64,000 nt of DNA from Panorpa germanica (lineage: Eukaryota; Arthropoda; Insecta; Mecoptera; Panorpidae): assembly GCA_963678705.1 (NCBI GenBank), contig OY783205.1, positions 28,759,034 to 28,823,033 on the forward strand, given 5' to 3'. This document shows positions 3,601 to 57,209 of the stretch, piece after piece. How positions within the stretch are numbered: position 1 is the stretch's first letter; every line of letters starts with the position of its first letter. The notes beneath the pieces are model-generated. The model was not told the origin of the DNA, did not search any database, and saw only the letters and a program-made list of their open reading frames with translations. A program made the position numbers and the translations under genes.

Positions 3601-4495
3601 ATATGTAATTGGGGGTCCCGCACATAGTTGTATGCTTTTCGTTGGGTCGAGTCAATTGCGTGGCTAATCCAAAATCTGCTATTTTCTAGAAACAAAAGAT
3701 TCGCGTCATTTTAATTTTGTATTAATTTTATCGAGAATAACTTACGAGAGTATGACTTACTACTTTCATATTCTTAGATAACAATAAATTTGACAATGAA
3801 ATATCCCTGTGAAGTATAGAATGAGAATGTAGATATAGCAATCCATTAACCACTTGTTTGAATATTTGACCTGCTTCAAATTCTGATAGGACCTAGGAAA
3901 AAATGTATTAGCTAAACCATCATAAGAGAATATATATAAATATATATAAAATATAACCAAGAACATCGAGTAAATTCACCTGTCCATTATTTTTAAGATA
4001 TTTTTGCAACTCTCCGTTTTCTGCTAATTCTAAAACAAGATAAATGTTCTGACCATCTTCAAAAAATGTGTACAGTTCTATAATAGCTGGGTGTTTTAGC
4101 CTGGAATGAATAGCAACTTCTTGATGAACTCTTTCAGTCAAGCCTGATTCAATCATTCGCTTTTTGTCTATCTAAAATATAAATATTGTACAATTTTTCG
4201 TTACCACACATAATTGGTTTACCTAAATTATTAATTATACCATCTTTATAGCGACATGGACTCCTGTTTTTTTACATTTGGCACGATGGACGCTAGCAAA
4301 ACCTCCCTTTCCTAAGAAATTGAGAACCTCATAAGCCTGTCAAAATTATAAGCAGTGTTAATAAATTATTATTAGTAGTATAAAAGCTAGGCACCATTTA
4401 TTATTGCGTATGCATTTCTTATGAAATAATGTTCAATATGTAAGTAATAAATACATTAGACTAACCTCTATATTTTCACCAAAAGTTAATGCCAT
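677..4495 (-). CDS. PLK4: Serine/threonine-protein kinase PLK4 (SAK), complete, 13 exons
   Basis: Polo-like kinase 4 is the master kinase of centriole duplication. Exons in transcript order: 4495-4466, 4336-4241, 4171-3980, 3892-3761, 3685-3449, 3357-3140, 3066-2234, 2150-1916, 1848-1625, 1551-1415, 1348-1193, 1118-984, 904-677; phases agree at every junction and give 950 residues. The kinase domain shows the glycine loop GKGGFA (19-24), VAIK lysine 41, HRD with Asp136, DFG at 154-156 and activation loop threonine 170 before MCGTPNY, the same numbering as known for human PLK4. A DSGVHT motif at 284-289 fits the beta-TrCP/Slimb phosphodegron. A low-complexity Asn/Ser linker follows, then a cryptic polo box region (about 580-745) and a C-terminal polo box 3 (about 876-950). 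The start lies in a 10-codon first exon ([10 protein letters not shown]). The catalytic loop reads [11 protein letters not shown] rather than the common HRDLTLSNLLL. Identification is very secure; minor splice borders could shift. Confidence 0.95.
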
Positions 4496-4900: not shown

Positions 4901-5020
4901 AAAAGAAAAATTGTACAACTTTTTCTATTTCATGGTGTCAGATCACTTCATTTAGTATACATATAATTTCTGACATATTCTATTTTATTAATTATTTTGC
5001 TCTCTCTTTCCATTCTGTTT

Positions 5021-6077
5021 TTATTTTAGCTATCGCAGTGTCGTATTTTCGAATTCAGTAGCAAAGAATAATATTTACAACATTTTAAATTTTTATAGTG
5101 TTATTTTGAAAAAATGTGTTGCTGTACGGAAGTGCAACATTTTTCTAATAGAAACTCTATTACTTTGTTGTGTGGGAATGGACTCATATATTGAGAATTT
5201 TGATTGATTTTAACTATAGATTTATTGTAGTTGTTATTATTATTTAGTATATTTATTATATATTAGATTATAGTTTACAGATAAAAAGATCTTACAACTT
5301 TTTGGTTTACGTAGTCATCATTTTCAGCGTCCATTAATCTGTGGTCATGTTAGTAAAAAATAATGGCCGCATGGTCGCGTTATCTAGCTCGCGATGTTTT
5401 AATGTAAATATAATGAGGTGCTCCACTTTTGCGAATAATTACTATAATTAAGTAATATGATTATTGTATTTATAAATCAAGTTCGTAAAGCGTGCAAGTG
5501 TTCAAATATATTTTCTGTCATGTTTCAATCGGAAAAGTTTAACTAGAGGTAGGGTTATGTCTAATAATGTTTTCTTGTAATATTATATCGAGTTTGATAC
5601 TGTTCATTTATACGCTATAATTATTCATTAATGGATTGTATAATGAGCTATACATAAACGTTCGTTCATCAATCATTATTATTTCTCCGCAGTAAAATAA
5701 TCTTTAAAACAATCCTTAATATATTTTAAAGTAAATTATGCAAATAACTTCTTATTTTCCATCGGATTTCTTATTTGAAATTGTCCTTCTTGTTGCAGTT
5801 GCAAGAACTCTTGCAGCTACTCGAACTCCAGGTGCTACTGTGAGGCGTTGACAGATTGGACTTTAAAGTGTATGCCTGTTTACAACATTTCGCTGTTACC
5901 ATTGATATTATGGATGGATTATTACATTTCAAGTAAGTTCACAGTTTGAATAATATTTTATCTATTATAGATTTAGGGTTTCCAAAGCTTCTCTTCGTTT
6001 TCATTAAGTATCGGTGACTTTGACCTCTTGCTAAATACAATTTTAATATTATAATGGGTTTGTGAACTCTTTTTAAG
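5021..6077 (+). repeat. Left arm of a ~1.06 kb inverted duplication
   Basis: This block matches the reverse complement of 23984-25056 nearly base for base, with scattered substitutions. Similarity starts at the shared TTTTATTTTAGCTATCG and ends just after TGTGAACTCTTTTTA. The right arm is the natural downstream part of the metalloproteinase gene, so this copy is most simply the derived one. It is about 20 bases shorter near 5330-5350: the right arm has two copies of CTGTGGTC flanking CAGAGATAATA, and this arm has one. That looks like a deletion between short direct repeats here or a duplication there. No transposase or terminal repeats are visible at either edge. Confidence 0.9.
5799..5932 (+). 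pseudogene. Intact displaced copy of metalloproteinase tail exon 13
   Basis: These 134 bases equal the predicted metalloproteinase exon at 24262-24129 with one difference (CTA to ATA, Leu to Ile). Both the acceptor (TTGTTGCAG) and the donor (GTAAGT) are preserved and the frame is open: it reads CKNSCSYSNSRCYCEALTDW and then a hydrophobic stretch. It stands alone on the plus strand, with no other metalloproteinase exon beside it. The nearest downstream sidestep exon (7312) is read in phase 0 while this copy ends in phase 1, so simple inclusion in the sidestep transcript would shift frame. Calling it non-functional is an inference; it could be an unused cassette exon. Confidence 0.8.
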
Positions 6078-7311
6078 TCTTTTTAGTCAAACATGTTTTG
6101 TTTTAATGGCCCTAGTGCTTGTCTTAAACATCAGAAATATGAGTTTAATGTCTTTTGTAAGTACCCTGTGTCTTTATGTACCCTAGACCTTTTCGAAAGT
6201 ACGTCGAAAGTGAAAACAAGTTACGTTGTTGGTTGATTGAAACGAAATAATTGTAGTACATAAAACCCCCAATAGATGACAGATTATTTGTTTTTCTATC
6301 AATAAGGTTGTAATCCTAGATAAGCCATTTGATGTTGACGGATTTCTTGTTTGATTATGTTTCAAGTATACAGATAGTGGTTTATTCTTTATGTTGAAAT
6401 AGAAATAAGATCAATTGATTCACATTTAGAATAAAGAAACTAAGAAAGACATCATCAATCTTGTCGTAAGCAATGTTCTACCAGAAAACAAAAAAAAATA
6501 CAGTGAGCATATAACGAAGAACAAATAAAATATATTGCGCAGTAGTTAGATCCATTGGATTTTTGTTTGTTCGAGATAAATCCCCTATGATATATGGACC
6601 TGGATGAGATCAGTTTATGCTCCTGTTGAAGTAAAACATATATTATGTTATATAATTAGGTTAGGGCTTTCCAGGATTCTGATGCCGCTGCAGACGCGCT
6701 GCTTGGAAATAATATTTTCACTTGATCTTCACTTCATGATTAACTTCAGCCTTAACTTGAATCTTCCAACTGCAAATGTTTAGATTTTTAAGAAATTATT
6801 ACATTGATCTTTATGAACAAATAATTGCTTTGAAAACATGCTTAAAATCAGAAATTCAGAAAATTGATTCCATTAAGGAACTCATGGAATTATAGAATTA
6901 TTATGGAAATAATGGAATTATTGCTAATAATATTCAATAGCCTTGCATCCAGTTTTCCGGAGTAATAACAGCATGCTTTCTATTCTATTATCTTTCTATT
7001 CATTTGATCCCCCCCCCCCCACACAACAACTACTACGCCAATTTCACATAAAAAGGTATACCTGTTACACAACATCCCTGTCCACAATTTCCCCTGTTCG
7101 CAATCGTCCATATCAAAGTCATTACTTCCATTACGTCTTCCAAGTTTCAGAAAATGGCATTTTACTTTTTCCACGTTTATAACAATAAAATACAAAGTGT
7201 TTTCATCTGGCACTTACTAATTTCAACGTAACATTATAACTGATCAGGTTTTTCTAGTTGTACAAGTTGTTGTACTAAGTTTAACGACTTAAACGACTCT
7301 TTTTCCCCCAG
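6078..7311. other. Non-coding stretch upstream of the first sidestep exon in view
   Basis: AT-rich sequence, probably intron of the sidestep gene. A run of about ten C residues followed by CA-rich sequence lies at 7010-7030. I see no Ig or signal-peptide exon on the plus strand here, which is why the 5' end of the sidestep gene is placed outside the window. Confidence 0.5.
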
Positions 7312-10300
7312 GACTCGTTAGATGGCAACGTGAGCATTTCTACATTGACGTTTACACCGACTCGACATGACAATGGTAAAACTTTATTGTGCAGAGCTAG
7401 ACATCCACATTTCGAGGAAGGACAAGCCCTCTACGAAGCCACTCTCGTACTGAACGTATTTTGTAAGTATTTACATGTGTTTTATTCTTCTATCATATTT
7501 TTAATTTAAGATTTTTTTATACCGATATTTCGAGTAACGTCGCTTTAAAATATGGAGGCGCACATGTGAATTGATACACACCGCTTTTATAGGAGTAACT
7601 TGTTTGGATTTTTATTAGGCCATAAATAAAAGGTTGCTGCAGACAACGACTTAGATATGGTCGTTACTCCGTTGCGTCATAAATTCGTTAAAAATTTAAA
7701 TTTCATTACAATCGAATCAGAAGTACATACAGTGGATAACATGATGATAATGTGCTTGTGTCCTCATTTTTCAGTGGTTGATTGAAATTGATGTTAATAA
7801 ATGTGTATTGGCGTGTTTATTTTATTAAATATCTAAATATTGACGGAGATATAGCAATTAAAAATTCGAATTGTAGTTTTAGCGCTAGTAATGGTCGGTC
7901 ATATTTGTATGACGTGAAATGTATTTTAACGTCAGTTATTTGTTGAGTAGGTCAGTGCTGTGGTAATGTTTTGTAGCTGTTGGTAGTCGAAATAATCAAG
8001 TCAAGTCAAAGAATAATAAGCTTGTATTTTATTTAACCCTGCTACGGCAGATATAATATTGAAATTTGATTGTTCCTTGAAATAGCTGTAAACAATATTT
8101 GATATATAAATACATATGTCACATGCATTTGGAATGTGTACAACGTTGAATCCCTTTAATAATTAAAGAGACAAAATGACTTTTTTAATTGTTAATATCT
8201 CTTAACATACAAGGAGTTATTAAAAAATAATTGAACATTTGAGGTTCTAGTAACCCACTTTATCTATATATAATACAGTTTTATAGAAATTTAGACATAG
8301 GACACAAGCCCATTTAAAATATGAAAACCTTTACAAGTATAATTTTTACAATCAATTTTGTTCCATTTTCAGTTATTCCAATTCTTCATCTTGAATTGGG
8401 CTCGAATTTAAATCCCGAAGACATCGAGGAAGGGGATGATGTCTACTTCGAGTGTAAAGTGAATGCCAATCCTTGGGCCTACAAAATAGTTTGGCGACAC
8501 AATGTAAGTCAAGCAATACCATTTTTATTTTTTATTTAAAAAAATTCTAAATTATCTTAGCTATATATCAAAATCACATTTTTTAAATGGCATAGCATCC
8601 CCTCTAGTAACTTTTAGGTTTATATATATTTTTTATTTCCGAAATAAAAGTGTGTTCACAATTTCCGGGTTATATATCCGGTGCGGGGTGAGTGTGTGAT
8701 ATTCAAATTTAAACCATAAAATTCAACCATAGATTGCAAAACTGATAGGGTCAAAATTTACAGCATTCTTTGAGTAACTGAATATGAAGTTAATCAATAC
8801 GATTTTACGATAATTGTAATTATTTAACTTTCCAGTGTTAAATTTAACAGTCAGTTTAGTTGGGTTCAGTTTCAGCTTAGAATGATTATTTATCTTATTA
8901 GCGTTATAAATGACCCATTTTAATGGAACCATTTAATATAATCTCAATTTATTTTGACATAAAACTTTGTTGCATACATTTACATAATATCAGAACCACC
9001 TTGAAGTTGGTTTTCTTGTATATTCCATTAAAGGGCTAATTCAAAAAGTCATATTGTTATATAAATATTACCTTGTATTTACAGTTGTACGCTGCATATA
9101 ATTTCATTAACATCCATTACAACAGAATATCTTAATGTCAAGTTTTTCCAACTATTCACGGATATCATGTCCTATTTACAGAGTGGTATGTTTATAAGGG
9201 TACTTCGTATTAGGGATGGAGGTTAAAACGTGGCATCAGGGATCTAAACTAGATGGGTGTTTCCCGAAAACCCATCCCTTATTTCTAGTAAGAAAGGCAT
9301 ATGTCGGATAACCCTTGCCCCGCGCCCCGCATCCCTCGCTCTGCACACTTCTTAAGTTCGTGCCCTCATCTTTAGGAAACCTTAGGTCTGGCTGACTCGA
9401 TCCACGGCCGTTTTGTCTAATAATAATATGTCATGTTAGATAGACATAGACATAGGACTTCTGATATTGATATATGTTTTGTATATGTTATTATATGATA
9501 TGTGCTAAAACTACTAAACTATTTTATATCCCCCTCCCACCGCCAGTTCTTTATGTATTTCCGGAATTTATAGATTTAGCTTTGTGTTTTGCATAGCGAA
9601 TGAAAAAGTACATATAATTATTCATTTAAGTTTCAATTATTGTAATTCGTCAAGTGTATTTGTATAATAAATGTTTTTATGTAAAATACTAGTGTTTCGC
9701 TGCTATTTGATTTAAAGCAAATAAAAAATTGTTATTAATTATTTAATAACAAAAAGGTCCTTCGAGAAGTTTTGGCGCAATCTATAGCTATCAAAGGAGT
9801 TAGATGCAATCAAGCAATCCGAGAATTGGAAACCGTCAACATCGCAGATAAGCAAACCTCAAGATTATATAGATCCATAGGTCCAAACTCAACCAACATT
9901 ACATTAAGAAAAAATATAAAACAATAGCTTTTGTGATCCGCTTAAAATAATTGATTAAACTATTTGTATTTGAAATAAAATTAAGGACAATGTACTTTTG
10001 AGATAATAGAGATTCTTGAATATTTTATAGGGGTATTTCATTAGATCAGACATTTCATTATACATTGATTATACGAAGAAGATGGACGTACGTCGTCTGA
10101 TTAGGTTTGTGCAGGCAAATCCGATTTTATATGAATCTGGCCACTTAAGGTTTGAGGAAATACAGAAGAGGAAGCGCCTGTGGGAGAGAATTGGACGTCA
10201 ATTGGGATTCACCGGTATGTAGTTACTCTCTTTATTAAATACCTAAATGTTCTAATTGAGTTTTAGCGCTACACATGTCGGACATAATTATGACGTAACA

Positions 10301-13300
10301 TGTGGCACTATTAAGGGATAGGTCAGTTATTTGCTATATGTATGATAAGTGTTCTGTGCTAAGATTCATTATTATTACATATAGAAGCCCATAGCTTACA
10401 ATATCTTAGGTAACCATTGTCTTACATTTTTGTTTCCTGATCTTTGAACAATACAGCTTCTTCCGACTTAAGATAATTTTTAAATATTTCTCGTGGCTTT
10501 TGGATTCTTTGTTTATCGCATTTGCATCCGTCATAAGAAAAGGTCGAAATTTAGTTGCATTTTTTGTTCTCATTTATAATGAATCTAAGTCTTTATGCGT
10601 GTATGTGGTATGGTCAGTTTATTTTATAAAATTATGCAGGATTAATCTATTGACAACATGTCAACGTTCTTTGGGTTGCCTAACCTAAAATTAAAAGTAT
10701 AGATCGATAATAAATAACGTTAAGTGTTGTTTTTAAACTGTTTTTATCTTATGTTTCCAGCCGAGGAATGCAAAAAAAAATGGTGCAACATCCGAGATGC
10801 ATTCCGGAGGAGTTTGAGGAAAAACACAAAAAGACGGTATAAATACCACGAAGAGTTGATGTTGAAACATTGCCCAGGTAATAGAAATACCACGGAAAAC
10901 GGTCCGATTGATAGTAACGAAGAATTAAATCGATCACACCACCACCACCATTAATACTATTTCAGAAACTCCGTTATCACTTTCAGATGCTGTACCACTA
11001 GACGATACCGTACCACCACCTGTTGAAGCTATATTGCCGATAGCTCCACCTGCCGACTTGTGCGCTGGAGCTTCTGCCGCAGAAGCAGGATTACAATATC
11101 TAAATATGATATGTTTTTATGTATTGTTTTTTTTTTACGTTTGTCTTTTGTGTTTGGCTTTATTTTCTTGTTAAATTTAATTTCCATTTTAAAATTCAAT
11201 TATTTAACTTGTTCTATATAAATTTTACATACAAAAATAAATAATTTTTGACTTGTGTACAGGGGATACCGCAAAGAATGCTGTCCGACAGGGGCAGTAA
11301 TTTCATGTCGGAAGTTTTCAAAAAAGTGTGCGAGAGGCTAGGGATTAAAAAACTGGGCACAACAGCTTATAGGCCTAATTGCAACGGGATAGTTGAGAGA
11401 AGCCACCGAACAATAAAAACATATCTGTCACACTATATAGAGAAAGATACCGCGGAGTGGGAAGACCACTTACCACTAGCTATATTCGCCTATAATACGT
11501 CGGTACACTCGGCGATTAAAGAAACATTGTCAGTTTATTTTATAAAATTATGCAGGATTACTATTGACAACATGTCAACGTTCTTTGGGTTGCCTAACCT
11601 AAAATTAAAAGTATAGATCGATAATAAATAACGTTAAGTGTTGTTTTTAAACTGTTTTTATCTTATGTTTCCAGCCGAGGAATGCAAAAAAAAATGGTGC
11701 AACATCCGGGATGCGTATAAGAGGAGTTTAAAGAAGAATACAAAAAGACGTTATAAATACCACGAAGAGTTGATGTTCTTGGAACATTGCCCAGGTAATA
11801 GAAATACCACGGAAAACGGTCCGATTGATAGTAACGAAGAATTAAATCGATCACACCACCACCACCATTAATACTATTTCAGAAACTCCGTTATCACTTT
11901 CAGATTCCGGAGACACATATTCTGTACCATTATCAAAATGGATCTAATATTTAGTCGCAAGTTCTTTTTTTGAAAATTAACCAAATGGCGGCTTTTAACA
12001 GTTACTTTTGGATTAGCGACAAAAAGTATTAGTTTATTGTTAAAAAAAAATCGAAATTTCTAACAAAAATGAAATTCCATCAGTTAAGGACTACTTTTCA
12101 AAATTTTCAAAAAAAATTACACTTTCAGAATCCATTTCTCTGTGTATAGGTTTGAACTGTGTCCATAATTAATAACAAGTAGCTACATATGCAGCAATTT
12201 CTACAATAGTACTGCTACTACAAAATGGTTTTGGGCTCATTTTTCACTGCAGTTGATTCATGCTTTCATTATTGTTTTCATTGAATCCACCGATACACCT
12301 CAAGAGTAAATTATCATTACTCAGAGCTTCATAAATTGAAGGTAAGGGGCGATAATAATAAGATTGCTTGTAAGGATCAAGCACCAAGAATCTTTACCCT
12401 TTGTGCACATCTCATGATGTGGTTCTGCATTAGTAGGATATGTCAGAATCTATTCATCGGCATATTTTCGAAATATCATACTTAAAGAACATGCAAAAAA
12501 ATAAAAATTGATTTTTTGATAAATCTAACTGCACCGTAGCCCTTAAGAAAAAATATAAAACAATAGCTTTTGTGATCCGCTTAAAAGAATTGATTAAACT
12601 ATTTGTATTTGAAATAAAATTAAGGACAATGTACTTTTGAGATAATAGAGATTCTTGAATATTTTAGGGGTATTTCACGAGGAAGATGGACGTCCGTCGT
12701 CTAATGAGCTTGGTGGAGGAAAATCCGATTCTGTATGAATCTGGCCACTCCTCTGGCGAGGAAATACAGAAGAGGAAGCGCCTGTGGGAGGAAATTGCAA
12801 GTCAATTGGGATTCACCGGTATGTAGTTACTCTCTTTATTAAATACCTAAATGTTCTAATTGTAGTTTTAGCGCTACACATGTCGGACATAATTATGACG
12901 TAACATGTGGCACTATTAAGGGATAGGTCAGTTATTTGCTATATGTATGATAAGTGTTCTGTGCTAAGATTTATTATTATTACATATAGAAGCCCATAGC
13001 TTACAATATCTTAGGTAACCATTGTCTTACATTTTTGTTTCCTGATCTTTGAACAATACAGCTTCTTCCGACTTAAGATAATTTTTAAATATTTCTCGTG
13101 GCTTTTGGATTCTTTGTTTATCGCATTTGCATCCGTCATAAGAAAAGGTCGAAATTTAGTTGCATTTTTTGTTCTCATTTATAATGAATCTAAGTCTTTA
13201 TGCGTGTATGTGGTATGGTCAGTTTATTTTATAAAATTATGCAGGATTACTATTGACAACATGTCAACGTTCTTTGGGTTGCCTAACCTAAAATTAAAAG

Positions 13301-16300
13301 TATAGATCGATAATAAATAACGTTAAGTGTTGTTTTTAAACTGTTTTTCCAGTATGTTTCCAGCCGAGGAATGCAAAAAAAAATGGATTAACATCCGGGA
13401 CGCATATAAAGAGAATTTAAGAAACCCAAGAAAGCCGTATAAGTACCACGAGGAGTTGATGTTCTTGGAACATTGTCCAGGTAATAGAAATACCACGGAA
13501 ACCGGTCCGATTGATAGTAACGAAGAATTAAATCGATCACACCACCATTAATACTATTTCAGAAACTCCGTTATCAGTTTCAGATTCCGAAGATTCATAT
13601 TCTGCATCAACAGCGTCATTAGACGTTACCTTACCGCCACCTGTCGCCAATGGTGAGAACGACGTAGACCTGTTCTTCAAATATTGTTTATCTAGATGTA
13701 GAGATCTACACCCTTTGGAGTGGCACAGGGCCAGGGCGGAGATCTTAGAAACATTGCAGAAATATGAAGCGCGTGCGCTGGAACTGAAATTTGGTACGTT
13801 GCAAGTAGAAAATATAAACCATACAGAAAAACAGTTAGAAAAATTTTTGAGTGTGAAAAATCTTTCTAATTTGTTTCACATGTATCGTGTATTTCATTTC
13901 TACAGAGTATTTATACGGTATATCTTATTTGCATACCTATTTGCATACCACTTTTTTGAATACCTATTAGAACCCAATTGAAACAAGGCGTCTATTTTCT
14001 TGTATAATATGTATAATGTGTTGTATAAATTATTTTTGTTATTTTTACTATTATTTTTGTTATTATTATTTATAATTATTTTTGTTATTTTTACATTCCT
14101 TTTTTGCACAGTTGCTTGTAGTTTGAATAAATTAATTTTAAACGAAAAAACATTAACGTGGTTTTCTTCACATTTTTCGGCAACATCATTGTACAACATC
14201 GCATTATTTTCTATTTAAAATGTCATTAGTGTAAATAGGAATATAATTATATTATGATTTAAGTTTTTCCCTTAATTATTTTTTAATTTTAGGAAACGGT
14301 TATCAGTATTATTGAATAGATATAGATTTATTGCATGAAGAAAATGATAAAATATAATATAATAGTTAATAAAAATTGACAAATATTTATAATCATTGAT
14401 TTATCGATAGTTCATCAACTATATATGGCGCGTTTTCGACCGGAGGCACCGGTTGACCTGAAGTGATCCTATGACCGCGCGCTCTCCGCCCTCTATCTTG
14501 AAAACGGTTCACCGTGTAAAAAATTTTTTTAAACAAAATTTGTAGAGAATTTTGTATTCTACAATATTGATAATAAATACAAATAGCAAAAAACCCATAG
14601 GAAATGAGATATTTACAAAAAAAGCGCAAAAAACCGATTTTTGTGACCTTTGACCTTGAAATTTAATAGTTGCGCACACCCTACCATATGTAGGTTTTGA
14701 TACAACTTTTAGGGTGCCAATATACAAGTATTTACAAACTTACAGCTGGGTATCTCGAATTCCGAGATTCTTACCTAATTTAAGCTTAAATGACTGGGCC
14801 AATAAAAGTTTTTGAAAAATAAATGAAACTTAAAATTATAACAATCCACCGACTAATAAGCATAGAAAATAACATTGTCACATTTTGTTAGTGATGTGGG
14901 CTACAAATTATTCATAAAATACTTGATTCTGTTCAATACATTTACAATAGTGATTTCTATATGTTTTTTTTTCTATTATTTTTAGGGTCAAATTGTGCAA
15001 CACAATTCTAAAACAGGCGTCATTATAAGTAGTAGCAGAGCAAGAGCCCCGCAGGGTGTAAGTCGGACCCAGGCTGGAAATTATACATGCATTGCTTCAA
15101 ATGTAGAAGGAGATGGAGAAAGTAATGCAGTTTCACTCAGAGTAATGTGTAAGTATTTATAAAGTTATACAACATTGAATCATTATTCCACTAATTTCAA
15201 TTCGACAAGATCACTTTTCTCATGTCTATAGTAATGTTAGGGACCTGTAACAAACAGTTTAGCATTTTCCTTTTCCCACAGATAAACCATTATGTCGAAT
15301 GGACTCGAAACGTGTCTACGGAATCGCACGTCATGAAACAGCTAAAGTTTTATGCGAGGTGGATTCTTTTCCTGCTCCTGACAGCTTCCGATGGTCGTTT
15401 AACAACACGGCGGAGACGATTGACGTGCCTGGCACCAGGTATATCACTTCACCGACCGGGGGACAACGCACATCTGTTCTGACATATAAACCCGTTACTG
15501 AGATGGACTATGGCACCGTTATGTGTTGGGCCACCAATGTTGCTGGTCAGCAAAGAGAGCCCTGTGTGTTTCATATTATAGCGGCCGGGAAACCAGATCA
15601 GCCGTATAATTGCACATTGTTAAATCAAACTACCGAAAGCCTTGAGGTGGAATGTATCGAAGGTAAGTCTATACTATACGCTATACTCTATACACCCTGT
15701 CTGCCAATAGACGCAGAGTAAAACATAGGCTAGGAACTGTTAAAAAGCGTACAAGAATATACGTGCTTCAATGTATCTACATTTAATTACGTTCGTTTCA
15801 GGATTTGATGGAGGACAGCCGCAATACTTTCTTTTGGAAGTCTTTGATCAGCAAACTGGATTATTGCAACAAAATGTGTCCAGCAAATTCCCCTTCTTTA
15901 GAGTAGGAGGATTGGACGCTGGTCGAGTACTGAAAATGATTGTGTACTCAGCCAATACTAAGGGCCGCAGTGAGACAGTCCCCCTCGAAGGATTTACTTT
16001 GAAAGCGGCCGAGAAACAGACAGGTAGCTTATGGCTTGGAATACATCTTATTATTTATGCAAATTGTTTTTAATGTGTGCCCTAATTATGTTCAGGTTCT
16101 CATACGCAGTTCGAGTTAACGCCCATATTGGGTATTTTGATAGGAGTTGTTACCGCATTGTTGTTAGTGACGCTGGCAATTGGAGGTGCTTTACGAATTA
16201 GAGGAAAATCTACAAACAGTAGATCTGGTCCTACAAGACCTGGTGCTTTGCCTCTTAAAGAAAAAGTATCGCTACCTTTAAGTCAGTCTGAAGATTTGTA

Positions 16301-17022
16301 CGATGAAAAGAACCCAGACGTCGTACATTATAATAAGGGTTTGTAAAATATTATCATTTTTACATATTCGTAACTTTTTTATATTACGACTCTCAATATT
16401 TATGTATTTATTTTTAGATTTAGATTATCAAATGCCATCAGCCGCTCAAACTCCTGCTGCACTGAATAATTCTATACGAAGTGGTTCCGATATTCCAATC
16501 TATCCTGCATTGGATGACCCCAGGAGGTCGGAAACTTCGAGATACAACGGTCAAATCGTGAGTTATTGGACAATGTATTGTATTGTTAGATACTGGGTGA
16601 TTATAATGGCATTATTCAATGTCTTTCAGACAACTCCTGAAGTAACTTATGCTGAATTATCGCTTCCTCATCCACGTTCTCTTCAGGAGTCGACCACTGG
16701 CCAAATCGGAGCATCTTTAATGAGCCCTACTACGGTGGGGGGCTCAAGCTACCGTGACGACCCGACAATCTACGCTCAAATTGACCACAACAGAAGACTT
16801 CCAATGCCACAAGTATGAACAATTCAATTTATGTGTTTATTGTCCTTGAAGCAACAGCAATTTATATGAATTTGTTTTTCAATATTTCAGGTGACATCTC
16901 CGTTATCACCACTAGTATCGCCAGTGTCGTCGTTATCATTATATCCTCAAGGTCGACCTTATCGTGAAATTGTAACAGTGCGGACGCCCTTAATGGGTAG
17001 TCAACAAGAAAGTTGTGTCTAA
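7312..17022 (+). CDS. Sidestep-family Ig/FN3 transmembrane receptor, 3' part (9 exons)
   Basis: Sidestep proteins are neuronal cell-surface receptors or ligands of Beaten-path proteins and guide motor axons. Exons: 7312-7462, 8373-8503, 14986-15148, 15282-15662, 15802-16023, 16096-16338, 16418-16557, 16630-16812, 16891-17022; phases agree throughout and give 581 residues to the stop. Visible in order: the end of one Ig domain (TLLCRARH), an Ig domain with VYFECKVNANP and YTCIASNVEGDGES, a further Ig domain (VLCEVDSFPAP, VMCWATNVAGQ), a fibronectin-III domain, one membrane segment (ILGILIGVVTALLLVTLAIG) followed by RIRGK, and a cytoplasmic tail. The tail has VTYAEL and TIYAQI tyrosine motifs. 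The signal peptide and first Ig domain are missing and should lie before the window, beyond PLK4. The 6.5 kb intron 8504-14985 is filled with repeats. Which sidestep paralogue this is cannot be told. Confidence 0.88.
8504..9901. other. First part of the large sidestep intron
   Basis: Mostly AT-rich and featureless. A small inverted repeat (AGGGATGG near 9213, CCATCCCT near 9275) bounds about 75 bases. From about 9757 to 9927 an open frame reads VLREVLAQSIAIKGVRC and continues for about 55 residues to a stop. It looks like a transposon ORF remnant, but I do not recognise the family. Confidence 0.35.
10082..11174 (+). CDS. MADF-domain protein, copy 1, with a non-BESS tail
   Basis: MADF domains are Myb/SANT-related DNA-binding modules found in insect regulators and in accessory proteins of some DNA transposons. 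Exons 10082-10214, 10761-10877 and 10966-11174 join in frame to 152 residues. The domain starts MDVRRLIRFVQANPILYE and continues through LWERIGRQLGF into AEECKKKWCNIRDAFRRSL. The third exon matches copy 3 for only its first residues (ETPLS), then becomes a Pro/Ala-rich segment and a hydrophobic tail, so the BESS-like region is missing. Whether it is expressed or a decaying copy is unclear; the frame is open to its stop. It lies in the sidestep intron in the same direction. Confidence 0.6.
11248..11530 (+). mobile_element. Ty3/gypsy-type integrase core fragment
   Basis: An open frame encodes part of a retroviral-type integrase catalytic core. LSDRGSNF supplies the second catalytic Asp and NGIVERSHR the Glu, with exactly 35 residues between them (the DD35E arrangement). 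It continues into EDHLPLAIFAYNTSVHSA, typical of the region after the core. The first catalytic Asp, the zinc-binding N-terminus, reverse transcriptase and LTRs are absent. The fragment ends abruptly at about 11529, where sequence of MADF-gene intron 1 takes over. It is therefore a dead fragment caught in the rearrangement that made MADF copy 2. Confidence 0.85.
11529..11948 (+). pseudogene. MADF-domain gene copy 2, 5'-truncated
   Basis: Starts inside intron 1 (GTCAGTTTATTTTATAAAAT, as at 10612 and 13217). It retains exon 2 (11675-11794, AEECKKKWCNIRDAYKRSL) and the start of exon 3 (from 11883), which stops after about 20 residues. Exon 1 with the first half of the MADF domain is absent, so no complete domain can be made. 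Exon 2 is one codon longer than in copies 1 and 3. Confidence 0.75.
11949..12542. other. Spacer between MADF copies 2 and 3
   Basis: AT-rich sequence without a coding frame or a repeat that I could match elsewhere in the window. It may be the remains of another insertion. Confidence 0.35.
12686..13981 (+). CDS. MADF-BESS-like protein, complete copy 3
   Basis: Three exons (12686-12818, 13364-13480, 13563-13981) join in frame to 222 residues. The MADF domain spans roughly residues 1-85 (MDVRRLMSLVEENPILYE, LWEEIASQLGF, AEECKKKWINIRDAY, YKYHEELMFLEHC). An acidic Ser-rich linker follows (SDSEDSYSAS). A segment around residues 115-150 (DVDLFFKYCLSRCRDLHP, then ARAEILETLQKYEAR) has the acidic-aromatic start and helical pattern of a BESS interaction motif. 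The last 40 residues are aromatic and hydrophobic. MADF-BESS proteins act as sequence-specific transcription regulators in insects, but MADF proteins also travel with PIF/Harbinger-type transposons, and this one sits in a repeat-rich intron in several copies. The start codon is the one shared with copy 1. Confidence 0.7.
13982..14985. other. Last part of the large sidestep intron
   Basis: Contains a TTTTTGTTATTAT-type simple stretch (14030-14100) and, at 14425-14512, an unusually GC-rich island (CGACCGGAGGCACCGG onward) in otherwise AT-rich sequence. The island has no supported frame and is probably a fragment of an unidentified repeat. Confidence 0.4.
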
Positions 17023-19223
17023 ATAAGCAGAAACATACAAATAATTAATATCCAACAATAATAATTATAAGTATCAAATATATTATATATGTAGTATTTT
17101 TAATTATATATCCTTGAACGATAAAAATATGATATACAAAAAAAGGAAAAATTCTTAAATATCTCCTGAGACTGAATGTGAATGTTTTATAATTAAAAAT
17201 TTTAAAAATACTGAAATAATAATTAAACTCATAATCTATATGTTTGTTGCAAATCTTCCTCTAGACAAACAAGTTCAAAGATATTTGTTTTTGTGATAGA
17301 TCGATCAAACTCATCATTCTAATCGAGAAAATCGAGAAATGTTTGTACGTCACTCATATTTCATTGATAGAAAATGAATAGTTAGAAAATAAAATGTCGT
17401 ATCATGAAATTCCATGAAAATACATGACTCCATATTGTTTTCCATGTAAATATGTAATTGAATTTGACAAAATGTCAAAAGAAACAGGGAATTTGTTAAA
17501 TTATTTAACATATTAACTACAACAAGGATTTGACAAAGTTGATAGTAAATTTTATACAAAATGAATTCTCTATTATTCCTTAGGTTTACGATTATATTAA
17601 GAAAACTTTGATAATTTAACCAAATATTATCACTTTAAGAACAATTTATATGTACATTTTTATTACATATTATTTTCAAAGGTAGGGCACATTTTATTCA
17701 AAATAAATGGTATTTTTATCTAGTCTAAATTTAATATAAGAAAATAAAATGTATAAAAGAGTTAAGTGAAATGACACAGAAGTGTATTGCCATTAGCATA
17801 AAGCATTTACTCTATTGTTGTAAAGAGATATATTGCAGCTTTGTCAGTAAGAGAGGTAATAAAATAGTATCTAGAAATATAATAAATAGAAACCGACTGA
17901 AAAGTAGGTGTCGAATGAACCAAATAACAATTTCAAACTGACAAACTGAAAGCTGCCTCTTTTATAAATACTGTAGTTTAATTATTACCTGAACTGTTTA
18001 TTGGATAGCTGCATAATTCTTTTTATAATTTAGAGTTTAGAATAATGATGAGAAAGATCAAAGGCAATCCATATCAAACTTGATGGTCATAAAATTGAAT
18101 TAACATAGATGTTTATAAAAGAATAATTAGAATAATATTTTAATTATTAATCGTATGTAAATTAGTAGTTTAATTTTGATTTTATTTACATCAATTTTAC
18201 ACTGAAAACTAATTCAAATTCAACAACTTGTGAATAATTAATATCGTTTCTAACATAATCCTTTGAAATGACTTTATAAATAAATTAACGGGTATTTTTA
18301 TAAAGAAATAATAAAAATTAAAAATACTGTTTAAATGTTAATATTTAAAAAATAAAACAATTATAATATAAAATTTAGGATAAATACAATCTTAAGTAAA
18401 TCACAATTTGTTGCCATAAAAATGAAATTATGTCCATGTTATATATCACACCTAAATTGTAATAAAATATTGTAAACTAAGTTAGACGTAAATAAATATA
18501 TGAACTTTAATTTTGTTAAATTCTACCACTGCCAATAAGTAAACCAATAAATTCAGCTGGAATAATATTAAATAAATTGTGCAGTTAATTAGATACTCGT
18601 ATTGCAGAACAGAAGATAATGAGGACTTGTAGGTGGGAATAAACTTTTATAACGTGATAGATCAAGAGGAATGGAAATAGAGAGTGTACATTTGAAGGAA
18701 AGAATGAAGTATTGTATCCAGTCACAATTGTTTTCAACAGAAGTCTTTTTTGAAAGGTAAATTCCATTAATTATAAAAACTTGTGGAAGTCATTTTCTGA
18801 ACTTCTTCGAGATGATAGAAGGCTTGTTAAAAACGATCGAACATTTTTATCATTTCTAACAAGAGTAGAGTATAACCTTCTTTCTTCTCAAGAAATACAG
18901 AAATTCTCTAAACACTATTAATTATTTCATGAAACTTCATATAATAAAATTCGTATAACTTCACTTATTATTCCAGGAGTGATCCAGGAAGAAATGTCAT
19001 CAATGCGTCCTCGCTAGCAATTGTGAACTTCCAGAAAAAAACAAAAATAGTTGTTCGAAAAAGAATTAATGAAATTTATAAAAATGTAAAAAAAAATGAA
19101 AATAGAAATATTCAATCGACATTTACTTCTTTTATTTCTACTTCTAAAATCTTAAAAGATATTTGCAGTTTGTATTGTTTCTCTTTTTACATACTTATAT
19201 AAGTTTTAACTTTTTTTCATTAA
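17023..19223. other. AT-rich region after the sidestep stop codon
   Basis: Expected to hold the sidestep 3' UTR at its left end. Otherwise very AT-rich with no supported coding exon on either strand. Confidence 0.4.
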
Positions 19224-19298
19224 GACACCGTGGCTCAGTGGCAAAGTGCCAGACTTGAAATCGAATCTCTGAATCAAACCAGAGTTCGAATCCAAATT
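19224..19298 (+). pseudogene. tRNA-Ser(UGA)-like unit 1
   Basis: It has an A-box-like GTGGCTCAGTGGCAAAGTGC, an anticodon region ACTTGAAATC that would present UGA, a variable region, and a B-box-like GAGTTCGAATCC. The order and spacing resemble a class II tRNA-Ser gene, but the acceptor and anticodon stems pair poorly. A degenerate tRNA gene or the head of a tRNA-derived SINE is more likely than a working tRNA. Confidence 0.5.
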
Positions 19299-19352
19299 AA
19301 TTTATATATTTTATTTGTTTTGTATATATTTTTATTATATAAACTTTATTTG

Positions 19353-19428
19353 ATTAACACACCATGGTAAAGTACCAGACTTGAAATCGAATCTCCAAAC
19401 CAACCCAGAGTTCGAACCCAAGTTAATT
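19353..19428 (+). pseudogene. tRNA-Ser(UGA)-like unit 2
   Basis: Same layout as the unit at 19224, with the A box damaged by a small deletion (ACACCATGGTAAAGTACCAG) but the anticodon region and B box (AGAGTTCGAACCC) kept. It appears to have decayed more. Confidence 0.5.
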
Positions 19429-19493
19429 ATTTTATTTTCATTATTATTGAGTTTGTCTTATGCTTATATAAGTTAAATACGACTTAATTCTTC

Positions 19494-19583
19494 GAGCCAC
19501 CGTGGCTCATTGGCAAAGTGTCGGTTCGGGTTTTCTAACTCTGCCTTGATTCTAAATAAGATCCAGCGTTCGAATCCGAAAAT
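19494..19583 (+). pseudogene. tRNA-like unit 3
   Basis: Starts like the other two (CCACCGTGGCTCATTGGCAA) and ends with a B-box-like GCGTTCGAATCC, but the middle differs (GGTTCGGGTTTTCTAACTC). The UGA anticodon region is lost. An upstream TTATATAAGTT is shared with the flank of unit 1, so flanking DNA was duplicated along with the units. Confidence 0.45.
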
Positions 19584-19619
19584 AATACTTTAATTAATTA
19601 AAATATTATTTCAAGATTC

Positions 19620-20180
19620 TATTCAATAGTTCCTTAGGAACTACTAGGTCATGACCGCTTGTATATGCACTTGTACTGTGACCAGTACTTGTAAGCGGTT
19701 GTGTATGCATACGACAGTATGCACCAAGCAGCTCTGAAGACGTCAGAGAGGGGGAGACTAGAAATAGTCTTGCTTCGTACAAAGTTAAGGTTGCATATAC
19801 ACGTAGCTATTCTCATAGCTATAAGAGAGCCTATAGAGCATATAATTTGTATGAAGCAGATACTTTGGTGGAAGCTCTGAGGACGGTCAGACAACGTGTG
19901 GGCCGGAGTGTCATTCATACATTGCATATACTCTGCTCTAGAACTTCTAGACCTTCCAGACCTTCCAGAATCTACAAAACACAAAACTGTTGTTCACACA
20001 ACAAAAAACACACGAAATCGCCACTGATATATATATGATAGTATATATATATCATTGTATGGCGTCACACTGCAGCTAACCGCTAAGGTACCACCCACAA
20101 CTACCAACTCCGGTGAATGCGAGTATTGTAGTTAGTGGGTGGATGGAATGGCCTGTTGGCCATTCCATATTTTTTTTCTC
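19620..20180. other. Unassigned repeat-like segment of higher GC
   Basis: A compositionally distinct block: GACCGCTTGTATATGCAC and AAGCGGTTGTGTATGCAT look like partial repeats of each other, a TCTAGACCTTCCAGACCTTC reiteration lies near 19950, TATATAT palindromes lie at 20025-20052, and GGAATGGCCTGTTGGCCATT lies at 20145-20165. It could be a decayed solo LTR or MITE. I cannot name a family or define ends. Confidence 0.35.
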
Positions 20181-21134
20181 TCGTTGACCTTGAAAAAATA
20201 ATTTAAAAAAAATTATTATTTATTAAAAAAAAAAATTACTATTTATTAAAAAAAAAACTCTGATACAATATTTATAGGCAATGAATTGTATTATATTAAT
20301 TTATTGTAAAAAATAAAGACATGAAAATAAAGAAAACACTTGAAATAAATTTTATATCTTTTATTTAACAAAACGTACTATGGTAGGGTGATACAAGTTC
20401 TTACTGATTCTATTCTAGTATGTTATACTCTGATACAAAATATCTAATCCTATTCAAGTATGTACTCATACAAGGTAAAGCTTGTTAAATTTAAGAAGCA
20501 CGTTTTTTAAAAACGTTTGTGTGTTGACCCACCCACGTCTGCTCGTCCACACCCTTACTCCTATACTTAGGTATATCAAGTGCGAGACGTACAACGACCT
20601 CGAGTTTTAACAAAAATTTATACTGCCATCTATGATGAATATAAGTAAACTCGAAATTGAGATTATCTAAGACAAATACATATATATATCTATATGTATA
20701 TAAATACATATCTATACGAGACATAAAATACAATAATATATAATAAACTGCTAATAACTATTGAGAGTTGATGCACTCAATTAAAATATATATTATATTA
20801 ATATGTCCGTATGCCAATACATACATTGTAAAAATAATGGACATCAATTGTGACATTTTTTGAGGTATGTAAGGAAAACAAAAAAACAGACAAATTTTAG
20901 AGTAAAATTTGCAAAAATCATTTTCTTTATGATCTTTTTAATTTGTAAGTTTACAAAATGTTTTCATTCTTGATAGGTGGTATAATTTTCACCTTTACAT
21001 TCCGAGAAGCCGTTATTTTTTGGCAGTCATCTAAAATTAAAAATTAAATTTAAAATGATGGCCATTCCAACAGGAGCGGTGATGACCCCTTCCCCATGTG
21101 GGTATTTTTATCGGTAAAATTACGTATATGTATA

Positions 21135-21355
21135 TATATAGTTCAAATTACGAGAGTTCAGTGGCGAATCATATTTAAAACAAGTTGTGGGGTATAAACT
21201 GCCGATATAACTAAAAAGCACTGACTTATTTTTCTATTATGCATATAGAAACGAATAAGATAAAATTAATTATCGTATTATAGATCTATACCGCTCTTAT
21301 AACCTCTTTTAAGTATAAGTCGCCGCCGAACTCTCGTGATTTGAAATATATTTAC
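21135..21355. repeat. Nested inverted-repeat element inside the foldback
   Basis: TAGTTCAAATTACGAGAGTT at the left pairs with the reverse complement of AACTCTCGTGATTTGAAATA at the right (about 21328-21349), enclosing about 170 bases of non-coding sequence. It lies wholly in the loop of the larger foldback, so it is either part of it or a later insertion. Confidence 0.6.
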
Positions 21356-21429
21356 ATAATATATATATATATTTATATAAATATATTATATATTTAACAT
21401 GTATATATACACAGATACATATATATGTA

Positions 21430-21611
21430 CAGAGGTGAGCACAAATACTTTCGGAAAGTATTCAAATACAATTTAGACTCTATAAAAAGATAAGTGCCGG
21501 ACGCAGGGGGCCTTTAGTGCTCCGAACGCTTGAGAAATTGCCAAAACTCGTCTGGAAGCCTAGTCTATTTTGCATTTAAATACTTTTGAAAAGTATTTGT
21601 GCACATCTCTA
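21430..21611. mobile_element. hAT-like MITE nested in the foldback
   Basis: A 182-base element with ends CAGAGGTGAGCACAAATACT and, on the other strand, TAGAGATGTGCACAAATACT. The imperfect terminal inverted repeats of the CAGAGRTG type resemble hAT elements. The flanking 8-mers TATATGTA and TATATACA agree at six positions, compatible with the 8-bp target duplications of that superfamily, although both lie in simple TA-rich sequence. No coding capacity. Confidence 0.6.
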
Positions 21612-22710
21612 TATATACATATATGTACAGGGTGTCCTGTCGCCAACTACCATTTATTTACGTGCATGTTAAACACGTAATTTTATCGATAAAAATACCC
21701 ACATGTGGGGAGGGTCCATTACCTCTCCTGTTGGAATGGCCACCATTTTAAATTTAGTTTTAGATGACTGCCAAAAAATATCGGCTTCTCGGAATGTAAA
21801 GGTGAAAATTATACCACCTATCAAGTAATGAAAACATTTTGTAAACTTACAAATTAAAAAGATCATAAAGAAAATGATTTTTGCAAATTTTACTCTAAAA
21901 TTTGTCTGTTTTTTTGTTTTCCTTACATACCTCAAAAAATGTCACAATTGATGTCCATTATTTTTACAATGTATGTATTGGCATACGGACATATTAATAT
22001 AATATATATTTTAATTGAGTGCATCAACTTTCAATAGTTATTTGCACTTTAAACAATATGTACGTTTTACCAACATTTTACATTACATATTTTATAATTC
22101 TTTAACAACTATCCTATAATATAATTTCGCTTTTCCATTTTATTTTACAATAACTATAACTTCTTCAATAACTTCATTTTTCATCTTTTAACAACAACAA
22201 CAAGAACAACAACTGCACTAGATCTGTACTTTATTGTTGTCTGTTATTTTCCATATGTCGTCCAATTGTTTACTGAAGTCTTCGAGTGCATAACTTTTTA
22301 TTATATTTATTTAATTATACCCATTTATTTTTTTTATAACCAAACCCAGAAAATAGAATTCTGGTCTGGGGATCAAACCCGAAGACACAGCAGTCTAACG
22401 TCATGCTTCAATGCTCACGGACATATTATCTACAAAACGAAACCAAAATATTGCTCTGAGTTGCATAATTCGATAGTTATTGTTGTTTGAATATCACACT
22501 TACATAATCCTAAATGCGTTTCTAATTTTTTTAAAATGGACAACATTCACGACAAACAAAGAACAACTTGTAATTTAATAATTTTTAATGATACTACGTA
22601 CACTTATTTCCTTAATTGAAAAATTGATCAACTCAGAGTGATGATTTTGTCAATAGTGTCGGTTTGTAGATAATATTATCTCTGTATGTCAATGGAAATT
22701 TGCTAGGAAA

Positions 22711-22836
22711 TCAAACTTGGGTTTATATTTTCATTTTCGCTGTGGCTATGGCTCTCCTATATTAAAAATAAGGTTCTAATTAGGATGGTGGCCTCCCCGT
22801 ACCTCACCGGATATTCAAATATAAATCCAAGTTTAA
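22711..22836. repeat. Possible short inverted-repeat element
   Basis: TCAAACTTGGGTTTATATTT is answered about 100 bases on by AAATATAAATCCAAGTTTAA, its imperfect reverse complement. The interior is short and non-coding. It may be a MITE of about 125 bases; family unknown. Confidence 0.4.
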
Positions 22837-23360
22837 CTACTTTTCTCTTTACTTATACTTTTCACAGGTCTCTTTTTAACGACTTTCTTTGCAATCTGAA
22901 AACGTTTTAATAATTATAATAATAATAATTTAATAATAAGTTATAATAATAATTTGATATTAAAATTATCAAAACGTTTATAACTAACATAGTCAAGTAT
23001 TTAATATAATACGTATTAATACATACATTCAATTATAACTTGAAACAAATTTTACTTTTGTATTTTAAATAAATTATCAGTCATGGATGAAATTTTAAAA
23101 TTATTTTCTGCTCTTTAAACTATTACATCGTTAAGATGATGTTTGAAAGTTTCCAATTTGCATCTCAAATGATTATTGAACTTCTTATTTAGAACAAATA
23201 TTACTGCAATTGATAAAGCATTTATATATTGCAACAATTACTTTATAATCTCCAATCTCCACTCTTTGGTCATAAAAGTTCTTTCTAATCATTCCATTTA
23301 AACATAAATTACTCTAAATCTTCTCATAAATCTCTGACGTCTTCGTATCTCCAAGTCTGA

Positions 23361-26300
23361 TTAATGCGATGTAAAAAACGCCATGCCATTCTTGAGTAAA
23401 AGACTTCGTGCCCAAATTACTTGATAACAATATGCTGTTGATGAAGCAGCGATTAACTTTGATGTAGCCGCGAATATAGTAAATACTCTGATGTACCCTG
23501 GAAATATAAGAATACTACTTAGCTAATGTTTTATGTAAAAAGCATTTAATTTATTATTAGTTCATTAACTTACCAATTTTATGCCTATGGGCATTTCTCG
23601 ATATATATTATATCTATTTTTCATTTCGCCTATTTTTCATTTTTCAGAGCGCCACTTTGAACTACACCAAACATTTCAGGGACAAGACCTTAGAACAAAG
23701 AAAAAATTATATTATATAGAAAAAACATAACACAAATTCTTTCGGAAAATTAAATACTTGTTCCACTACTTGATAAAAGAGCTATTGTAATTTCCATAAA
23801 TCACGTATAAATTAAACTGTGTTAATTAATAAAGACGAGTCTAGTGAAAAAGAGATAAGAAATATCTCGATAATTTCTACTGGAATGTTTTATGCAAGTA
23901 AAGCATATCATTTGGATATTTAAAAAAAATAAAAACGCCACTACATTAAAATTTATTTTAATCAAAAATTTAAAAAAACGACCCCTAAAAAGAGTTCACA
24001 AACCCATTATAATATTAAAATTGTATTTAGCAAGAGGTCAAAGTCACCGATACTTAATGAAAACGAAGAGAAGCTTTGGAAACCCTAAATCTATAATAGA
24101 TAAAATATTATTCAAACTGTGAACTTACTTGAAATGTAATAATCCATCCATAATAGCAATGGTAACAGCGAAATGTTGTAAACAGGCATACACTTTAAAG
24201 TCCAATCTGTCAACGCCTCACAGTAGCACCTGGAGTTCGAGTAGCTGCAAGAGTTCTTGCAACTGCAACAAGAAGGACAATTTCAAATAAGAAATCCGAT
24301 GGAAAATAAGAAGTTATTTGCATAATTTACTTTAAAATATATTAAGGATTGTTTTAAAGATTATTTTACTGCGGAGAAATAATAATGATTGATGAACGAA
24401 CGTTTATGTATAGCTCATTATATAATCCATTAATGAATAATTATAGCGAACAGTATCAAACTCGATATAATATTACAAGAAAACATTATTAGACATAACC
24501 CTACCTCTAGTTAAACTTTTCCGATTGAAACATGACAGAAAATATATTTGAACACTTGCACGCTTTACGGATTTGATTTATAAATACAATAATCATATTA
24601 CTTAATTATAGTAATTATTCACAAAAGTGGAGCACCTCATTACATTTACATTAAAACATCGCGAGCTAGATAACGCCATTGGCGGCCATTATTTTTTACT
24701 AACATGACCACAGTATTATCTCTGGACCACAGATTAATGGACGCTGAAAATGATGACTACGTAAACCAAAAAGTTGTAAGATCTTTTTATCTGTAAACTA
24801 TAATCTAATATATAATAAATATACTAAATAATAATAACAACTACAATAAATCTATAGTTAAAATCAATCAAAATTCTCAATATATGAGACCATTCCCACA
24901 CAACAAAGTAATAGAGTTTCTATTAGAAAAATGTTGCACTTCCGTTACAGCAACACATTTTTTTCAAAGTAACACTATACAAATTTAAAATGTTTTAAAT
25001 GTTATTCTTTGCTACTGAATTCGAAAATACGACACTCCGATAGCTAAAATAAAAAAAAATTCTCAAATTTTCTCTTAGATAAAGTCAGTAAAAAAAAATT
25101 GGTTGATCTAAGTAGATAATTTGAACATTTTCTGTAAAAATATTTCTATAATAAAGAACAAAATGTAATCTTTGAGCTAATTTTTAAAACCAAGAAGTAT
25201 TTGAAATACAAAGGACCCTATTTGGGTTTATATTTAGTATACAAAATAAGTACAGTTCATTTTCTTAATCATGAAAGTTTATTCTATTCGTTTAATATAT
25301 TATATTGTATATCATTTCGTTGTGGGCACCCGAACCATTGATGCGTCGATAGTTGAGGATAGCCTGTTGCAACTCGAATGTAATGATTATCAAACTTCCA
25401 TACAAAAATGCCTTTAAAGAAGTAGGTCAGTCCTAAAAATATGCTCCCTGATGATATACACTTAACTATTTAGTTCACACCACAGTTCACACTAGAATAT
25501 TAGAAGATCTATTATTCTAATGTGAATGACTGTTTTTAAACGACTGATTATTATTTACCATCCTTCCACGTTACAGCAGTATCTAAATTATCTGGAATTC
25601 CTCTCCATCGTGTTATCGGCAAAGGATATTTTTCATCCATTTGTTTAGTGCTTTCGTTGAATCGCCATATTTGATCTCCGCTATATAAATAAGTCTTTCC
25701 ATTTTTCTGCCACACCTGTATTTTCAAAATATATATTATTTCAAAAATTTCTTGCATTTCACCATACACATATATATTGTTATACCTGCGCGGCATCAAT
25801 CTTATCCATATTCGAGGAAAGCCCATAATCGGTGATAGGACGTGGGCTGTCGATAAAGTCGTATCCATTATAAACCCAATATACATTTCCTGTACAAAGT
25901 TAAAATATCCAACAGTTAGTTGTGCTAATAAAACTAAAATTATGCACCAAGGCTTAAATTTTCAAAGTATATAAACCTGTAAATAATATAATGGCCCCAT
26001 CAGTTGGGCGCTCATATGCTGCATCAATTTTAACTACCGATTCCGGTAGCTTCCAAAATAATTCTCGAAACAAAACTGGGTAACCCTCTTCTATAACGCC
26101 TTGTTCACGCAGACGCCAGACGTACTAAAAAAATAATATTTTAAAATAACTAGACTATAGTTATGTATATTCATACACAAAGATATTAAAAAAAAATTAT
26201 GTTTTACCTGATCTTTAAAAACAAACAACTCTTGCCTCAAAAAAGCTACAGCATCATAGTTACCATAACAGATATCTGCAGGAGTTTGCGGTCTTGGTGG

Positions 26301-41471: not shown

Positions 41472-41962
41472 TTCTCCAAAAAACGCTGAAATCATAATTG
41501 ACAATAATATATCTTAATTATTTTTGAGGTGTATTACAATCTCACAATATATTTGCATATTCAATACTACAATATATCCAAATCTAATAAGACATAACTC
41601 TAAATTCATTAATTCTCAAAATAAAATGATCTATATGAAAAGTGTAACCTTTAGTCATTTTTTCTTTAAATTTTTATGAAATTTCTAAATGGTTATACAT
41701 TATTCAGGATAACATTTAATGTAATTTTTCTATTGAATGCGTGTTATAATGTTTGAACTATAATAATAGTCAGATTACATACATACGTAAACAATTATAA
41801 TTGCATGTAAACATTTTATATTTCATTAACCAAATGCATAAATATTTTATATACAATACAAAATTCTTCTAAAATACGAGACGTTGTATAAAATGATCAA
41901 ATTTAAAGTAATATATATATAACATATACATAAATAATTGAAACAATTTCTAAGCATCTTAC

Positions 41963-50551: not shown

Positions 50552-50586
<35 letters not shown>

Positions 50587-57127: not shown

Positions 57128-57209
<82 letters not shown>

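What the first reader, a model, noticed from the sequence alone, without database searches (positions are those of the whole stretch)
5021..25056. An intact metalloproteinase tail exon duplicated in inverted orientation 18 kb away, around most of the visible sidestep gene
Segments 5021-6077 and 23984-25056 are inverted copies of about 1.06 kb. The right one holds exon 13 of the metalloproteinase in its proper place. The left one carries the same 134-base exon with one substitution, both splice sites intact and the frame open, in opposite orientation upstream of the sidestep exons. Conservation of a whole exon with its flanking introns points to a recent segmental duplication. The arms could mediate inversion of the ~18 kb between them, which holds all nine sidestep exons in view.
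Basis: partly seen in the sequence, partly recalled or inferred. Interest (0 to 1): 0.75.

Follow-up and report, generated by a model that had tools for sequence, protein, structure and literature searches.

The report
Inverted duplicate of one exon segment
A one-kilobase piece of what looks like insect DNA, holding a single well-formed exon that is probably an alternative last exon of a matrix metalloproteinase gene, is present a second time in reverse orientation 18 kb away; this is most likely an ordinary recent small duplication, and it may mark or allow a local inversion.

Summary
Arms 5018-6075 and 23986-25055 are inverted copies: 1047 aligned bases, 12 substitutions, 6 indels. Each holds the same 134-base exon (5799-5932 +; 24262-24129 -) with one difference; splice sites, frame and G+C mark it as a likely real exon. 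The nine visible exons of a sidestep-family gene lie between the arms. The left arm starts about 0.5 kb upstream of a candidate Plk4 start codon on the other strand.

Membership in the metalloproteinase is only inferred: exon 12 can read on to its own stop, a few residues as in homologues; none of the 120 listed homologues (of 1451) has a similar tail; the exon 12 donors are weak. And an inverted duplication around a segment can be the footprint of a past staggered-break inversion, not only the means of a future one (PMC3355041, PMC5080602, passages).

Best reading: a recent dispersed inverted duplication, right copy to left. Copy number elsewhere and the place of sidestep's 5' exons stay untested: the genome search did not complete (15 tries).

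The parts
5018..6075 (+). Left arm of the inverted duplication (metalloproteinase sense on +)
   Evidence: Self-BLAST; alignment with the reverse complement of 23986-25055: 1047 aligned, 12 substitutions, 6 indels
23986..25055 (-). Right arm, starting about 0.27 kb past the weak exon 12 donors of the metalloproteinase; holds most of the putative intron 12, the exon and about 0.14 kb downstream
5799..5932 (+). Left copy of the 134-base exon; open in one frame; a stop after 14 codons if read in phase 0
   Evidence: the sidestep exon at 7312 starts in phase 0
24129..24262 (-). Right copy of the exon; candidate alternative last exon ('exon 13') of the metalloproteinase
   Evidence: Splice-pair scan and G+C of the left copy, 0.40 against 0.27 in the rest of its arm; phase compatible with exon 12
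25287..28255 (-). Matrix metalloproteinase gene, exons 1-12; exon 12 read-through ends at 25287, AATAAA at 25283
   Evidence: Pfam Peptidase_M10 and Hemopexin; gene model; homologues; polyA-like signals
7312..17022 (+). Nine 3' exons of a sidestep-family Ig protein, phase-consistent, stop at 17020-17022; about the first 240-320 residues of seven homologues find no match in the window
1602..4495 (-). Plk4 (SAK) gene, the part with family matches up to a candidate start codon at 4495, 523 bases from the left arm; a frame at 680-904 may be its C-terminal end but matched no family
   Evidence: Pfam Pkinase, Plk4_PB1, Plk4_PB2; N-terminal exons by pattern only

Best explanation
A recent, small, intrachromosomal inverted duplication. 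A 1.06-kb stretch at the 3' end of the metalloproteinase locus (right arm) was copied, in inverted orientation, to a site about 0.5 kb upstream of the candidate Plk4 start codon (left arm), probably by template switching or templated repair of a break at short T-rich homologies. The left copy is a passenger: it lies on the strand opposite to the metalloproteinase and cannot serve it in cis. It carries a ready-made cassette on the sidestep strand, which would put a premature stop into sidestep if spliced in from a phase-0 exon. In its right-hand place the exon is most likely an alternative last exon that gives the metalloproteinase a second C-terminus. Shown: the duplication, its divergence, the exon's splice-site sequences and frame. 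Inferred: direction right to left, copying mechanism, exon membership and lack of function on the left.
For: Two copies in the window by BLAST at E up to 1e-10, with corresponding flanks unrelated. Copies are collinear end to end, and the arm ends do not look like a transposon's: no terminal inverted repeat (5 of the first 20 bases match), and the best target-duplication candidate, TTTTTA at both ends of the arm, has a length that 150 of 2000 random pairs of sites reach or exceed. The 19-base gap fits a deletion in the left copy between two CTGTGGTC repeats that the right copy still has. In phase 0, the phase of the first visible sidestep exon, the left exon stops after 14 codons. Right exon: acceptor phase matched by two donors in exon 12, and polyA-like signals at 23962 and 23957, about 0.15 kb after its in-frame stop. 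Drosophila Mmp1 makes secreted and GPI-anchored forms by alternative splicing of its last three coding exons (PMC5353688, passages).
Against: Direction is not proven. The exon 12 to 13 splice has weak donors, and none of the 120 listed homologues has the tail. The exon ends in a very strong donor (score 10.3), odd for a last exon. The strict thresholds of the splice-pair scan were set after seeing this exon (its acceptor scores exactly 4.8); with acceptor 4.0 and donor 8 there are 30 pairs, some in intron or repeat DNA. Copy number elsewhere in the genome is unknown.
Confidence: 0.6

Rival explanations
1. The arms are the footprint of an 18-kb inversion made by staggered breaks: repair of the staggered ends left the same 1.06 kb in inverted orientation at both ends of the flipped segment. 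The nine sidestep exons were then on the other strand before.
For: Inverted duplications of originally single-copy DNA on both sides of a segment are the recognised mark of this mechanism, including fragments of genes at the ends (PMC3355041 and PMC5080602, passages). In the two best-120 lists, 20 species have a metalloproteinase and a sidestep-like protein both on contigs of 10 Mb or more; contig lengths agree in 7 of 20 (4 of these 7 are Anopheles) and differ in 13 of 20, so the adjacency is not general (read by eye).
Against: It would cut sidestep in an intron, yet its nine exons are intact; an unbroken sidestep with 5' exons left of the window is simpler, although Plk4 would then sit in its intron. 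Contig length is a crude stand-in for a shared chromosome, and orthology of the listed proteins was not tested.
Confidence: 0.17
2. The arm is a copy of a dispersed repeat or transposon that carries or captured the exon.
For: The segment between the arms holds other repeated DNA (9904-13604, 20744-22051), and the arm is bounded by TTTTTA in both copies.
Against: No terminal inverted repeat, no convincing target duplication, only two copies in 64 kb.
Confidence: 0.11
3. Assembly artefact: an allelic fragment of about 1% divergence misplaced in inverted orientation.
For: A divergence of 1.1% is in the range of heterozygosity (general knowledge).
Against: No N in the window; sharp ends with unrelated sequence on both sides; six indels between the arms.
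Confidence: 0.06
4. The left copy is the source and the right copy the newcomer, so that the metalloproteinase gained a new alternative tail exon by duplication.
For: None of the 120 listed homologues has such a tail, and exon 12 alone can end the protein.
Against: On the left the exon has no known gene to serve: read in sidestep phase it stops after 14 codons. The 19-base gap suggests later loss in the left copy, though this does not fix the direction.
Confidence: 0.06

Closest known systems
Inverted duplications at inversion breakpoints made by staggered breaks (Drosophila mojavensis, D. subobscura; PMC3355041, PMC5080602, passages seen)
   Same: Single-copy DNA with gene fragments in inverted orientation at both ends of a segment; one D. 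mojavensis case has a duplicated piece of about 1 kb
   Different: No reference arrangement is at hand, so no inversion is shown; copy number here is untested; the segment is only 18 kb
[quoted passage not shown] PMC3961182, passages seen)
   Same: Inverted repeats around a segment (inversions of 5.1-226 kb there); in one case the likely exchange lies in 782 bp of 99.9% identity
   Different: No second orientation seen here
Alternative 3' splicing that gives secreted and GPI-anchored matrix metalloproteinases (Drosophila Mmp1; PMC5353688, passages seen)
   Same: Catalytic and hemopexin part shared, a separate candidate tail exon after it
   Different: No transcript evidence; tail only mildly hydrophobic (best 12-residue mean 1.63, best 19-residue mean 1.24); no sequence match to the 120 listed homologues

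Membership tests
Recent segmental (non-transposon) duplication | Two collinear copies of high identity with unrelated flanks | tested here: met
Recent segmental (non-transposon) duplication | Low copy number in the genome | not testable with these tools
   The genome search on the own genome gave no answer in 15 tries; two copies in the window
Transposable element copy | Terminal inverted repeats or target-site duplication | tested here: not met
   5 of 20 terminal bases match; the best flank repeat has 6 bases, which 150 of 2000 random pairs of sites equal or exceed
Staggered-break inversion footprint | Inverted duplication at both ends of a segment | tested here: met
Staggered-break inversion footprint | Segment between is inverted relative to an outgroup | not testable with these tools
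   No genome of a relative was at hand; the 5' sidestep exons are not found in the window
Matrix metalloproteinase, insect Mmp2-like | M10 catalytic domain and hemopexin repeats | tested here: met
   PF00413 6.7e-50, PF00045 2.9e-28; top hit 54% identity over 90% of the query
Matrix metalloproteinase, insect Mmp2-like | The duplicated exon is part of its coding sequence | tested here: inconclusive
   Phase agrees, donors weak, no homologous tail among the 120 listed, region search without candidates

The most novel reading that the evidence does not exclude
The arms mark an 18-kb micro-inversion by staggered breaks that flipped the last nine sidestep exons away from their 5' exons, and in the same event gave or rebuilt the alternative tail of the metalloproteinase: one rearrangement changing an adhesion gene and a matrix-protease gene.
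Probability: 0.1. Interest if true: 0.6.

Novelty: new member of a known kind. Interest (0 to 1): 0.3.

Why it matters
It is a clean example of how one exon-like unit with its splice sites is copied to a new place on the other strand, and of a structure that either records or permits a small inversion around a sidestep-family gene (in Drosophila, from recall, sidestep guides motor axons). If the arms are a breakpoint footprint, the place of the 5' sidestep exons would show it at once.

Tried and rejected
Dispersed transposon: not favoured, copy number untested. Gene conversion between arms: no signal (P = 0.36). Insulin-like A-chain exon: the first 15 residues of the tail peptide match an insulin-like peptide 5 A chain at E 0.32; not significant. 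RNA family: none at gathering score in the window. Tail search in the protein database by region 540-594: no candidate shared three words. Paper search on segmental duplications with five terms: no paper. The exon 12 donor at 25335 (model) gives QCCKNSC; the donor at 25329 gives the family-like WFGC, which I used by hand in the protein. A check of the exon 12 read-through at the end was in the wrong frame and is not used; one search has the right one. Organism: trees of 32 of the 120 sidestep and 28 of the 120 metalloproteinase homologues place the window beside Diptera, with low support for that node (0.385 and 0.516); a scorpionfly-like insect is only a guess, and a taxonomy look-up and a paper listing (listing only) added nothing.

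Full report
What is there. Self-comparison of the window finds an inverted pair, 5018-6075 and 23986-25055, as the highest-scoring repeat (blocks). Aligned in metalloproteinase sense, the arms share 1047 bases with 12 substitutions (7 transitions) and 6 indels. Differences are spread as chance would spread them (P = 0.36 for the longest clean run). Corresponding flanks are unrelated. The window has no N.

The exon. The 134-base stretch 5799-5932 (+) / 24262-24129 (-) has a good acceptor (score 4.8), a very strong donor (10.3), one open frame and G+C 0.40; the rest of the left arm has 0.27, exons 2-12 of the metalloproteinase 0.35-0.44, its introns (putative intron 12 included) 0.14-0.30. With acceptor at least 4.8, donor at least 10, 60-250 bases and a frame open, the whole window has five pairs on both strands: these two, one inside the 1971-codon frame at 35601-41513, and two at 2314-2234 and 1551-1415 in or next to the Plk4 frames. 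These thresholds were set after seeing the exon; with 4.0 and 8 there are 30 pairs, 11 on + and 19 on -, among them known exons and pairs in repeat DNA. A G+C floor of 0.40 drops the left copy (0.396) and keeps the right. So the exon is likely real by sequence, but no transcript proves it. The copies differ by one base, Leu to Ile.

Which gene it belongs to. The metalloproteinase on the minus strand has 12 exons with consistent phases from 28255, Peptidase_M10 and Hemopexin domains, and homologues in insects and other arthropods, the top hit at 54% identity. Exon 12 has two phase-2 donors that fit the acceptor of the duplicated exon, both weak: 25335 (1.1) and 25329 (-0.1); the eleven other donors score 1.9-8.8. 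Read without splicing, exon 12 goes on ...WFGCPQRNDIQYNILNE and stops, with AATAAA at 25283. Homologues such as P0001 and P0002 end ...GCPEKPDTIWW and ...GCPEKLDTVWW, and tblastn carries P0001, P0002, P0005 and P0012 to 25311, past both donors; the likeness there is only a few residues. A direct comparison of the tail with the 120 listed homologues (of 1451 found; some listed ones are fragments or second isoforms) gives only scattered matches of 16 columns or fewer, and a region search gave no candidate. I therefore see two possible ends: a short one in exon 12 and a longer one through exon 13. Drosophila Mmp1 has secreted and GPI-anchored forms through alternative splicing of its last three coding exons (PMC5353688, passages). 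The tail here is only mildly hydrophobic, so GPI anchoring is a guess.

The neighbourhood. Left of the left arm is Plk4 on the minus strand (Pkinase, Plk4_PB1, Plk4_PB2), with a candidate start codon at 4495. Between the arms nine exons of a sidestep-family protein run from 7312 to a stop at 17022 with consistent phases; homologues bear names such as nephrin, syg-2, hemicentin and, once among the 120 listed, sidestep VI, so the family name rests on that one label and on recall. In the seven homologues tested, residues before about 237-320 find no match anywhere in the window at E up to 1. The 5' exons therefore appear to lie outside; if they lie to the left, both Plk4 and the left arm sit inside a sidestep intron.

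How it arose. The plainest account is a copy of the right stretch into the left site. The exon has a gene that it could serve on the right and none known on the left: in the phase of sidestep it stops after 14 codons. The 19-base gap looks like a deletion in the left copy between two CTGTGGTC repeats. No terminal inverted repeat is present, and the length of the TTTTTA repeat at both ends is reached or exceeded by 150 of 2000 random pairs of sites. A divergence of 11 substitutions outside the exon in 913 bases would mean about half a million years at the Drosophila neutral rate of 0.0111 quoted in PMC3355041, if that rate is per site per million years and held here, which is not known.

The inversion question. 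The literature gives the reverse reading as well: inverted duplications of single-copy DNA on both sides of a segment are how staggered-break inversions are recognised (PMC3355041, PMC5080602; passages), and inversions between inverted repeats can recur (PMC3961182, passages). In 20 species that occur in both best-120 lists with contigs of at least 10 Mb, the two genes lie on contigs of equal length in 7 (Anabrus, Athalia, Macrosteles and four Anopheles) and of different length in 13 (read by eye; Anabrus counted as equal although it has a second sidestep-like protein on another contig). Adjacency here is thus not general in insects, but this says nothing about the time or manner of the rearrangement. 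I give a past inversion 0.17.

Limits. The genome of the window could not be searched (15 unanswered calls, listed in Membership tests), so copy number and the 5' sidestep exons remain open. Gene models are mine, without transcripts.

Noticed in passing
9904-10988, 11526-11905, 12543-13585: Three related direct repeats (91-95% identity) in a sidestep intron; a frame in one (12668-12823) matches the MADF DNA-binding family (E 3.7e-6).
   Followed up: partly
11245-11613: Fragment resembling a retroviral-type integrase core (rve, E 3.1e-5, below the curated cut-off), between and partly overlapping those repeats.
   Followed up: no
20744-21125 and 21675-22051: A second, closer inverted repeat of about 380 bases with 549 bases between the arms, 94.5% identity; perhaps a foldback element.
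   Followed up: no
35601-41513: A 1971-codon open frame on the minus strand; only a weak Pfam match to a C2H2 finger model, below the cut-off (PF18387, E 4.8e-4).
   Followed up: no
48278-61732: Minus-strand frames, several rich in Gln and Asn, with a Mastermind-like transactivation domain (PF20802, E 1.2e-6) at 60743-61732.
   Followed up: no
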